A stretch of DNA of 64,000 nt from the NCBI RefSeq assembly GCF_018139565.1, contig NZ_JAGSPK010000003.1, positions 620,001-684,000 of the forward strand. Direction: 5' to 3'. The notes under the pieces are model-generated. The model did no database searches. It saw nothing but the letters and a program-made list of their open reading frames with translations, and was not told the origin of the DNA. The DNA comes from Cognatundibacterium rivi. GTDB taxonomy: Bacteria; Pseudomonadota; Gammaproteobacteria; Burkholderiales; Burkholderiaceae_D. Of this stretch, positions 17,385 through 58,261 are shown piece by piece. How positions within the stretch are numbered: position 1 is the first letter of the stretch; each line of letters starts with the position of its first letter. The position numbers were made by a program, and so were the translations under genes.

Positions 17385-17598
17385 GCACCAAATTAAAAAC
17401 GAGCAACGACCATTTTCACCCAAAAAAATATCAGGCAATCGGATACTAAAAAGAAATAGTGATGAATCAGAAAAAGCATCAGGCTTGATGCGACTACCCA
17501 GAACGCCACCGCATCAACTACGCGCTGGAAATTGACTGCGGGCGAAAACGGTACGCGGCACAGCAACACGGAAAATATCGATCAATCAGGCATTTTTA

Positions 17599-17673
17599 GG
17601 GGGGTATATGGCAAAAACACCTTCATCTCCTTATAAATAAAGGGCTTTTAAATATACTCCAGGGAGTATATTT
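17599..17673. repeat. ATACTCC/GGAGTAT repeat element, copy 1
   Basis: A left box GGGGGGTAT (17599-17607), a conserved middle (CATCTCCTTATAAATAAAGGGCT) and a palindrome with 11-base arms, AAATATACTCC and GGAGTATATTT, around AG (17650-17673). The same design occurs at 19624, 23994 and 53381. Confidence 0.8.
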
Positions 17674-17709
17674 TTAATGTCAGAAGCCATTTCTGAGCGT
17701 TGCAGACGT

Positions 17710-17739
17710 AAAAAAGGCGGAACCTGTTGCGGTTCCGCC
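17710..17739 (-). terminator. Terminator downstream of the immunity gene
   Basis: Stem GGCGGAACC / GGTTCCGCC with a TGTTGC loop; on the minus strand it is followed by TTTTTT. It ends leftward transcripts from the Rhs cassette before the alr control region. It is part of the long direct repeat; the second copy is at 19735-19765. Confidence 0.8.
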
Positions 17740-17853
17740 TGTGAAAATACGATGTTAGCAAGCGTAGCGTGCCTGCTCCGTTAGGTGCAGTACGCACACC
17801 GCGCTCCTCAATTAAACGTAACGCCAGCCGACGAACATCAACATCGCCTAATT

Positions 17854-19531: not shown

Positions 19532-19623
19532 TTAGTGTGTTTGCGGGCGCGCTGGAGATTGACTGCGGGCGAAACGGTACGCGGCGCAGCAGCACGCAAA
19601 ACTCAGTCAATCAGGCATTTTCA

Positions 19624-19699
19624 GGGGAGTATGTGCCAAAAACGCCATCATCTCCTTGTAAATAAAGGGCTGTAAAATATACTCCCCGGAGTATATTTT
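19624..19699. repeat. ATACTCC/GGAGTAT repeat element, copy 2
   Basis: Left box GGGGAGTAT (19624-19632), middle CATCTCCTTGTAAATAAAGGGCT, and a palindrome with 12-base arms, AAAATATACTCC and GGAGTATATTTT, around CC (19674-19699). Confidence 0.8.
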
Positions 19700-19734
19700 T
19701 AGCTCCAGAAGCCATTTCTGCGCGTTGCGGGTAT

Positions 19735-19765
19735 AAAAAAGGCAGAACCTGTTGCGGTTCCGCTT
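19735..19765 (-). terminator. Terminator downstream of mutT
   Basis: On the minus strand GCGGAACC / GGTTCTGC with a GCAACA loop and one G-U pair, followed by a T-run. It is the second copy of the hairpin at 17710 and ends the argJ-ATPase-mutT transcript. Confidence 0.7.
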
Positions 19766-19873
19766 ATGAGAATACGATGTCGGCAAGCGTCGCGTGTCTG
19801 CTCGACGGATGCTGTACCGTGATTGAGGCAATCGCACCGACGCTGGGTCAACAAATGATGAAGCGGATGAGAT

Positions 19874-23993: not shown

Positions 23994-24072
23994 ATACTCC
24001 CCCCTGTTTTTATAAAAATCGGCTTTATCTCAGCATAAACATTGGGGTGTTTAAGATACTAGGGGGGAGTAT
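23994..24072. repeat. ATACTCC/GGAGTAT repeat element, copy 3 (diverged)
   Basis: Starts ATACTCCCCCC (23994-24004) and ends with its exact reverse complement GGGGGGAGTAT (24062-24072), 79 bases in all. The middle aligns with the other copies (TTTATCTCAGCATAAACATTGGGG). The central left arm is degenerate (GATACTAGG). The 465-base gap 23820-24284 otherwise holds only the secA terminator. Confidence 0.72.
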
Positions 24073-24223
24073 TTTTAAGGCCTTATTGAGCAACAAAACC
24101 GTTGCAGACAAGATTATCACCACTGTCAGCCCAAGCACGGATGCCGCAATATTGATGACCAAGACATACGCAGCCATTGCAGCGACAAACTGCACGATAC
24201 TGATTGCGCAAAAAAATATCCAT

Positions 24224-53380: not shown

Positions 53381-53462
53381 ATACTCCCCCTCAAAAATAA
53401 GAAAAGCTGCTTCATCTCCTTATAAACAAAGGGCTTCAAAATATACTCCGGGGAGTATATTT
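53381..53462. repeat. ATACTCC/GGAGTAT repeat element, copy 4
   Basis: Left box ATACTCCCCC (53381-53390), middle CATCTCCTTATAAACAAAGG and a palindrome with 11-base arms AAATATACTCC and GGAGTATATTT around GG (53439-53462). The distance from the left ATACTCCCC to the right GGGGAGTAT is 79 bases, exactly as in copy 3. It sits in the 267-base gap between uvrD and thiE, next to the thiE stop. Confidence 0.8.
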
Positions 53463-55991: not shown

Positions 55992-58088
<2,097 letters not shown>

Positions 58089-58261
58089 TTTTTTCCAAAC
58101 AAAAACGGTATTTCTGTCTTTGCCGGAAGAGCGCCATTATAGCGGATTTATTGCGGATTTATTTTGGGCTTATGGCGTGCTTATTGCGAGCTTATTACAT
58201 GCCTAGTCACCGTTTCAATTTTACGGTTGCATGTTGAAAATCAGAAAAACCAATGTCAGTG

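What the first reader, a model, noticed from the sequence alone, without database searches (positions are those of the whole stretch)
53381..53462. Dispersed repeat family built on ATACTCC/GGAGTAT palindromes (four copies in the window)
Copies at 17599-17673, 19624-19699, 23994-24072 and 53381-53462 share a left CCCC/GGGG box, a conserved middle (CATCTCCTTATAAAYAAAGG) and, in three of them, a palindrome with 11-12-base arms around a 2-base centre. Copies 3 and 4 span exactly 79 bases between the outer ATACTCCCC and GGGGAGTAT ends. They lie in gaps and always close to gene ends. No transposase is near. This could be a MITE, a REP-like sequence, or a protein-binding site; I know no name for it.
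Basis: seen in the sequence. Interest (0 to 1): 0.75.

Follow-up and report, generated by a model that had tools for sequence, protein, structure and literature searches.

The report
Chromosome-wide binding sites of metalloregulator-like protein
The four repeats belong to a family of at least 150 elements of about 80 bases in this bacterium that look like paired binding sites for a small relative of the metal-sensing repressors CsoR and RcnR, which suggests that such a repressor became a chromosome-wide DNA-binding protein; the binding itself has not been tested.

Summary
The repeat family is real: the four window copies belong to at least 150 in this Undibacterium genome. Each copy pairs a half-site, GGGGAGTAT in either orientation, with a palindrome, ATACT-(G/C)6-AGTAT, usually 62 bp away centre to centre. 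In 12 synteny-matched pairs with U. aquatile, 225 of 228 half-site and arm bases are identical, against 515/574 between the sites and 1180/1440 in the flanks. Copies lie near gene 3' ends in both orientations and show no target-site duplication. The palindrome has the published form of a CsoR/RcnR type 1 operator. A divergent CsoR-family (PF02583) gene elsewhere in the genome has the same kind of palindrome just upstream in 12 of 12 genomes, exact ATACT-N6-AGTAT in 8. All genomes in which copies were found also have this gene; the 7 without it searched with the broader model have none. Best explanation: dispersed operator pairs of this protein, kept by selection, probably architectural or insulating. 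Binding and function are untested, the converse fails (some species have the gene and no copies), and an origin by ancient mobility is not excluded.

The parts
17593..17675 (+). Copy 1 of the dispersed element (left half-site type A)
   Evidence: model R1, 80.0 bits; sequence
17599..17607 (+). Copy 1 left half-site GGGGGGTAT
   Evidence: sequence
17654..17669 (.). Copy 1 right palindrome ATACT-CCAGGG-AGTAT (operator-like)
19617..19700 (+). Copy 2 of the dispersed element (type A), in a duplication with copy 1
   Evidence: model R1, 80.8 bits
19624..19632 (+). Copy 2 left half-site GGGGAGTAT
   Evidence: sequence
19679..19694 (.). Copy 2 right palindrome ATACT-CCCCGG-AGTAT
23994..24078 (+). Copy 3 of the dispersed element (left half-site type B)
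   Evidence: model R1, 52.6 bits; sequence
23994..24002 (-). Copy 3 left half-site ATACTCCCC (inverted form)
   Evidence: sequence
24056..24072 (.). Copy 3 right palindrome ATACT-AGGGGGG-AGTAT (7-base centre)
   Evidence: sequence
53381..53462 (+). Copy 4 of the dispersed element (type B), the copy named in the finding
   Evidence: model R1, 61.1 bits over 53402-53462; sequence
53381..53389 (-). Copy 4 left half-site ATACTCCCC (inverted form)
   Evidence: sequence
53443..53458 (.). Copy 4 right palindrome ATACT-CCGGGG-AGTAT

Best explanation
Each repeat is a pair of binding sites for a small CsoR/RcnR-family protein that the genome encodes elsewhere (here called type II: 104 aa, own genome C5:55221-55532). 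The right part of each element is a full type 1 operator, ATACT-(G/C)6-AGTAT; the left part is a half operator, GGGGAGTAT in either orientation, usually 62 bp away centre to centre (about six helical turns). The protein probably controls its own gene through the same kind of palindrome, which in the own genome overlaps the apparent -10 region (TTGAAT-17-TAGAGT, read by eye). Shown here: the shared palindrome, the co-occurrence, the positional conservation and the extra conservation of the sites in the copies compared. Inferred: that the protein binds the elements; that tetramers on the two sites bend, wrap or bridge the DNA, as is reported for RcnR on tandem operators; and that, sitting behind genes more than in promoters, the elements work as insulators, transcription roadblocks or chromosome-organising sites and not as ordinary promoter operators.
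For: (1) A palindrome of the same kind lies 23-65 bases before the type II start codon in 12 of 12 genomes: exact ATACT-N6-AGTAT in 8, ATAC-N8-GTAT in 11; the twelfth, G147, has ATACTCCCCCCAGGTAT inside the overlapping upstream ORF. In a wider set of 30 loci, scored without choosing start codons, it is found in g1 6 of 6, g41 2 of 2, g42 3 of 4, and as TACT-N6-AGTA in g13 4 of 4, but in 0 of 14 loci of g29, g4, g19 and g12; own-contig rate about 0.01 per 300 bases. G041 also has it. In G069 and G042 this site is the only exact ATACT-N6-AGTAT of the genome, in G107 one of two. (2) R1 copies occur in 12 of 145 family genomes; all 12 are among the 42 with a type II protein at E < 1e-20 (Fisher 1e-7, not corrected for relatedness). 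With the broader model R2, copies occur in 10 of 27 genomes, all with type II; none in the 7 without type II and none in the 6 with type II but no palindrome found upstream. (3) In 12 synteny-matched pairs, half-site plus arms are identical at 225/228 bases, against 515/574 between the sites (p = 2.7e-6) and 1180/1440 in flanks (p = 1.3e-14). (4) 14 of 23 U. griseum element loci align with own sequence that I held; in 13 the matching place is inside it and an element is there, left type A in both species; for the fourteenth it falls just outside the window, where one search lists a copy. (5) On contig C10, 21 of 22 half-sites lie in elements. (6) Published type 1 operators: G/C tract of 3-8 bases between AT-rich inverted repeats 6-9 bp apart; RcnR TACT-G6-N-AGTA (passages). 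(7) In G147 left and right sites have changed together in 3 of 4 loci seen, and its type II protein has the lowest PF02583 score of that kind. (8) The FrmR-like paralog has a differently arranged G/C-tract site upstream and is not found in 5 genomes with elements (G147, G165, G104, G068, G090).
Against: No binding or function was measured. The converse fails: G041, G042, G069 and G107 have the gene and the upstream palindrome but no dispersed copies, and G164 has the gene and only 2 weak R2 matches. G133 (g42) has the gene but no palindrome was found upstream. In g13 and G143 the palindrome centre is often not a G/C tract, and most upstream palindromes lack a long G tract. In G147 the upstream site is not in a clear promoter. 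The recurring inverted repeat in the middle of the element is not explained. Lineage-specific consensus sequences point to past multiplication by some copying process. The 12 pairs were chosen by the motif in one species, so constraint is overstated, perhaps twofold. Genomes with elements come from only three genera plus MAGs, so the co-occurrence is few independent events.
Confidence: 0.6

Rival explanations
1. Ancient non-autonomous mobile elements (MITE-like) that spread in an ancestor and are now inert; the operator resemblance is secondary or accidental.
For: High copy number and lineage-specific consensus sequences in own genome, G143 and g41; half-site and palindrome tend to be in inverted orientation, like terminal inverted repeats (A/C 26, A/G 10, B/G 13, B/C 3, mixed 14 of 66; Fisher p = 6e-4); own-genome pairs up to 0.98 identical between the sites, at least some of them in duplicated DNA.
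Against: No target-site duplication at any fixed offset beyond shuffles; 12 of 13 copies on one contig shared with U. aquatile and 13 of 13 testable loci with U. griseum; sites more conserved than spacers; every genome found with copies has one regulator gene.
Confidence: 0.2
2. Structured RNA or single-stranded DNA element (REPIN-like, attenuator or 3' UTR stabiliser) defined by its hairpins.
For: The middle is an inverted repeat in several lineages with different letters (GTCC-N11-GGAC in G143, GGCC-N11-GGCY in g41, a 13-bp stem in L218; read by eye); in some g13 copies the right palindrome extends to 16-18 bp arms (by eye).
Against: No outstanding covarying pair within lineages (largest z 2.33 of 2657 column pairs); RNAalifold finds 5 pairs and none compensated; orientation to tandem genes unbiased, 17 against 25, p = 0.28; no Rfam family reaches threshold at the copies.
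Confidence: 0.1
3. Ordinary promoter operators of a very large regulon of the type II protein.
For: The type II gene itself has the palindrome upstream; some elements lie in promoter regions (U. oligocarboniphilum merR-like gene, L206).
Against: Of 59 distinct contexts 15 are convergent and 2 divergent, the reverse of what promoter operators need (p = 0.0003 against gap length); in tandem pairs 29 of 42 are nearer the 3' end.
Confidence: 0.1

Closest known systems
RcnR operator of E. coli (TACT-G6-N-AGTA, two sites in the rcnA-rcnR gap; passages)
   Same: TACT/AGTA inverted repeats around a G tract; tandem arrangement; same protein superfamily (PF02583)
   Different: RcnR has two sites in one promoter region; here there are about 100-170 elements per element-rich genome, mostly behind genes, with one full site and one half-site, and the centre is usually 6 not 7 bases
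CsoR, FrmR and InrS regulators
   Same: type II protein matches PF02583 (E 1.5e-15) and, weakly, PDB chains named CsoR, InrS and FrmR
   Different: the residue opposite the last Cys of the aligned CsoR chains is Gln; NCBIfam scores of 33, 24 and 21 bits against cut-offs of 175, 133 and 138 for RicR, FrmR and RcnR; none of the 9 neighbour proteins scanned looks like a metal exporter
REP/BIME and REPIN repeats (abstract listing and passages)
   Same: dispersed, extragenic, near gene 3' ends, over 100 copies
   Different: about 80 bp, no GTAG/CGTC tag, no transposase gene seen beside copies, positions shared between the species compared
MITEs such as Correia elements with an IHF site (recalled; listing only)
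   Same: small dispersed elements that carry a DNA-binding-protein site
   Different: no target-site duplication found, and the site pair defines the element

Membership tests
CsoR/RcnR type 1 operator | G/C tract of 3-8 bases | tested here: met
   centres CCCCCC 23, GGGGGG 14 of 66 distinct own copies, most others mixed G/C; often not met in G143 and g13 copies
CsoR/RcnR type 1 operator | AT-rich inverted repeats 6-9 bp apart, TACT/AGTA in RcnR | tested here: met
   ATACT-N6-AGTAT, 94 exact sites against 1 control site in own genome; definition
CsoR/RcnR type 1 operator | present upstream of a cognate family gene | tested here: met
   12 of 12 genomes (8 exact; G147 loose and inside an upstream ORF); 15 of 30 loci (11 ATAC-N8-GTAT, 4 TACT-N6-AGTA), absent in 15, among them G133
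CsoR/RcnR type 1 operator | bound by the protein | not testable with these tools
   needs gel shift, footprint or ChIP
CsoR family protein (PF02583), for the type II gene | family profile match | tested here: met
   E 1.5e-15, 57.8 bits, cut-off 22.8
Copper-sensing CsoR | Cys-His-Cys metal site | tested here: not met
   first Cys kept, Gln opposite the last Cys in the alignments; the roles of the residues and the His position are recalled, and the aligned chains do not show His there
MITE | terminal inverted repeats | tested here: inconclusive
   half-site and centre inverted more often than not, p = 6e-4, but 13 of 52 unmixed copies are not
MITE | target-site duplication | tested here: not met
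   no direct repeat beyond shuffles, 66 copies, k = 2-6 and 8
MITE | autonomous partner with same ends | tested here: inconclusive
   1 of 22 half-sites and no palindrome lies outside elements in 382 kb; the rest of the genome was not examined this way
REP/REPIN | GTAG or CGTC tag and short (20-40 bp) palindrome | tested here: not met
   consensus against the definition in PMC3733652 (abstract, passages)
REP/REPIN | flanks a RAYT gene | tested here: not met
   one PF01797 match in the genome, C16:1680; nearest copy listed is C16:36357 (capped list)
Known RNA family | Rfam gathering score | tested here: not met
   only the TPP riboswitch matched in the window

The most novel reading that the evidence does not exclude
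A protein of the CsoR/RcnR metalloregulator fold has been recruited as a chromosome-wide architectural or insulator protein in Undibacterium and two other genera, with 100-170 dedicated two-site elements at the ends of transcription units in the richest genomes: a kind of nucleoid-associated protein and site system that I did not find in the papers searched.
Probability: 0.33. Interest if true: 0.9.

Novelty: new variant of a known kind. Interest (0 to 1): 0.74.

Why it matters
Extragenic repeats have been known for decades, yet few are tied to a protein that explains them. Here a dispersed, conserved repeat points to one small gene, so the function becomes testable with one purified protein or one deletion. 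If the link holds, it shows how a local metal-sensing repressor can turn into a chromosome-scale DNA-binding system, with species that have only the autoregulator (three g42 species, G041) standing beside species with over a hundred sites.

Tried and rejected
RNA function: RNAalifold on 43 copies gave 5 uncompensated pairs; a scan of 2657 column pairs within lineages found nothing outstanding; Rfam had no match at the copies. REP/RAYT origin: the only Y1 transposase match in the genome is not linked to a listed copy and is flanked by other repeats. MITE origin by target-site duplication: none. FrmR-like paralog as the binder: its upstream site is arranged differently and it is not found in 5 genomes with elements. 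Literature: seven searches listed no paper that appears to describe the element; most subscription journals are not in that library, and I read passages of four papers only. An intrastrand-triplex repeat paper (PMC4666352, passages) describes a different motif. Even spacing: gaps between the 150 listed copies are slightly more even than random (CV 0.82 against 0.98 +- 0.07); I give this little weight because intergenic placement alone may cause it.

Rows dropped and faults: the alignments hold 150 rows each, many of them partial reverse matches to the palindrome; 91 of 150 and 90 of 150 were kept. The last part of the script, meant to tabulate the middle stem, ran on wrong columns and was not used, so the stem was judged by eye. 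In one search, 5 of 67 contexts overlap a crude gene call or lack a neighbour and were excluded, and 3 more were removed as duplicates. In one search, 1 of 13 copies had no ortholog and was left out. In A4 one row, L288, went in on the wrong strand. One search gave upstream sequence for 29 of 30 loci; one search repeated the test for all 30 without choosing start codons. Gene calls are my own codon-usage calls, not an annotation. Model R2 was built partly from G147, G165, G085, g13 and g41 copies, so low counts there include training rows.

Full report
What was checked. The four copies exist as described, with small corrections to lengths.

The family. The middle motif with up to 3 mismatches has 34 genome hits and 0 in the reversed control. 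A sequence-only model from 43 copies (R1) finds 150 copies, which is the scoring cap, so 150 is a lower bound. The copies share a fixed plan: a left half-site, GGGGAGTAT (type A) or ATACTCCCC (type B) at the same place; about 16 bases; a middle part with two subtypes in the window; then ATACT-(G/C)6-AGTAT. In type A the end of the half-site and the start of the palindrome are 46 bases apart in 41 of 48 copies, that is 62 bp from centre to centre. Of 66 distinct own copies, type A goes with a C centre 26 times and a G centre 10 times, type B with a G centre 13 times and a C centre 3 times, and 14 have mixed centres (Fisher p = 6e-4). On contig C10, 21 of 22 GGGGAGTAT sites and 10 of 10 palindromes with 6-7-base centres lie in the 13 elements.

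Placement. Of 59 distinct gene contexts 15 are convergent, 2 divergent and 42 tandem; against gap lengths on C10 the convergent excess has p = 0.0003; in tandem gaps 29 of 42 lie nearer the 3' end; orientation is 17 to 25. In the window, copy 4 lies between the 3' end of a thiamine-phosphate synthase gene and the start of a uvrD-like gene, copy 3 between an acyl-CoA dehydrogenase start and the secA end, and copies 1 and 2 by an ORF pair with Pfam-named toxin and immunity domains; none of the 10 neighbour ORFs scanned has a transposase domain.

Conservation. Twelve of 13 copies on C10 have a copy at the same place in U. aquatile. Over those 12 pairs the half-site is identical at 106 of 108 bases, the palindrome arms at 119 of 120, the centre at 70 of 75, the stretch between the sites at 515 of 574 and the 60-base flanks at 1180 of 1440. 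The copies were chosen by the motif in one species, so the contrast is inflated, though in my judgement not enough to remove it. For U. griseum (G032) I held 23 element loci; 14 align with own sequence in hand. In 13 of these the matching place is inside that sequence and both species have the element there; for the other, L283, the place falls just left of the window, where a copy is listed at C9:619061. Copies were found by the model in both species, so here only position, not letter counts, is evidence; the remaining 9 loci had no match in the part that I held. At the ybgC gap the element is present in 5 of 12 Undibacterium genomes, a remnant in 1, and absent in 6, read by eye, with very different middle parts.

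Distribution. In 145 genomes of the family, R1 finds copies in 12, from 3 of 44 genera. In Undibacterium the R1 counts run from at least 150 (G063) through 98 (G032), 84 (G143), 83 (G156), 13 (G147), 10 (G165), 5 (G085) and 4 (G104) to 0 (G164, G145, G149, G119). A broader model R2 from several lineages gives 42 in G085, 20 in G104, 14 each in G165 and G147, 2 in G164, 101-139 in four g13 genomes and at least 150 in G090. Exact ATACT-N6-AGTAT counts are 168 and 154 in G068 and G090 with 0 in the control, and at background in G145, G149 and G119. An exact pattern scan of public genomes also gave related copies in a groundwater Burkholderiales MAG and two soil Burkholderiaceae MAGs, while other hits outside Undibacterium, and the single viral-contig hit, looked like chance.

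The regulator. The palindrome looked like an RcnR operator, so I searched 15 genomes for PF02583. Besides an FrmR-like paralog in some there is a second, divergent kind (type II) in 12 of them, absent from G145, G149 and G119. A palindrome of the element kind lies 23-65 bases before its start codon in all 12: exact ATACT-N6-AGTAT in 8, ATAC-N8-GTAT in 11, and in G147 a looser ATACTCCCCCCAGGTAT inside the overlapping sensor-kinase ORF. In the own genome this site has no half-site partner and no copy is scored there; in G032 and G156 the model gives weak matches of 20.5 and 21.8 bits over it. In the wider family 42 of 145 genomes have type II at E < 1e-20, and these include all 12 genomes with R1 copies (Fisher 1e-7). 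Among 30 loci scored without choosing start codons the site is found in g1 (6 of 6), g41 (2 of 2), g42 (3 of 4) and, as TACT-N6-AGTA, g13 (4 of 4), and in 0 of 14 loci of g29, g4, g19 and g12. G041 has a variant site. The g42 genomes have one or two exact sites in the whole genome, and in G069, G042 and G107 one is this site. So the gene with its upstream palindrome can exist without the elements, but no genome in which I found elements lacks the gene.

What the protein is. It matches PF02583 and, weakly, CsoR, InrS and FrmR chains. In the printed alignments the first Cys is kept and Gln stands opposite the last Cys; which residues bind copper is recalled. NCBIfam scores are far below the cut-offs for RicR, FrmR and RcnR. 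Neighbours differ between lineages and include a GGDEF/EAL protein, a radical-SAM protein, SlyX, a peptidase, AnmK and a sensor kinase; of 9 scanned, 8 have a Pfam match and none is a metal exporter. This fits a stand-alone DNA-binding protein better than a metal-efflux repressor, but that is inference.

How it probably works. Published work defines type 1 operators as a G/C tract of 3-8 bases between AT-rich inverted repeats 6-9 bp apart and reports TACT-G6-N-AGTA in tandem for RcnR (PMC3902906 and PMC7055735, passages seen; wrapping by RcnR only as a title in the reference list). The element has one such operator and a half operator six turns away, usually in inverted orientation, so two tetramers on one face could bend or bridge the DNA. 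Because the elements sit mostly behind genes and in both orientations, I favour a roadblock, insulator or chromosome-organising role. Binding: about 0.6-0.7 likely. Architectural role: about one in three.

What remains unexplained. The middle inverted repeat recurs with different letters in several lineages by eye but shows no covariation within a lineage. Lineage-specific consensus sequences require some past copying process; no target-site duplication, autonomous partner or clean empty site was found in what I examined. G164 has the gene but almost no copies.

Noticed in passing
window 17573-17778 and 19598-19803: 206-base direct repeat, 84% identical, that carries copies 1 and 2; the ORFs between them include an Imm53 immunity protein and an ORF with a weak Ntox24 match.
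   Followed up: partly
window 57990-58093 (-): TPP riboswitch upstream of a thiC-like ORF (ORF name by eye).
   Followed up: no
L246-L264 (G090, G068) and L173, L191, L193 (soil MAGs): In these genomes many copies have an extra inverted repeat directly to the right, ACTGACC..GGTCAGTTATT, so the element is longer there.
   Followed up: no
L287, L290, L293, L300 (G147): In three of these four loci left and right sites have both changed to GGGGGTAT / ATACCCCCGGGGGTAT, and the type II protein of this genome has the lowest PF02583 score of its kind.
   Followed up: partly
G000:C5:64416-72632 (L324): Four copies, all in the same orientation, within about 8 kb, some 9 kb from the type II gene.
   Followed up: no
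G000:C16:1680-1958 (L031): Single Y1 transposase (RAYT-like) gene flanked by its own CTCTGACCCTAAT repeats, unrelated to the element.
   Followed up: partly
L303-L309, L316: Upstream regions of FrmR-like paralogs carry a C4-6 tract site (such as AGTATA-CCCCCC-TACCCTAT), a different arrangement from the element palindrome.
   Followed up: partly
L206 1-1300 (U. oligocarboniphilum): An element lies between a divergent merR-like gene and a short ORF, with GGGGGAGTATC directly before the ATG; a promoter-side copy.
   Followed up: partly
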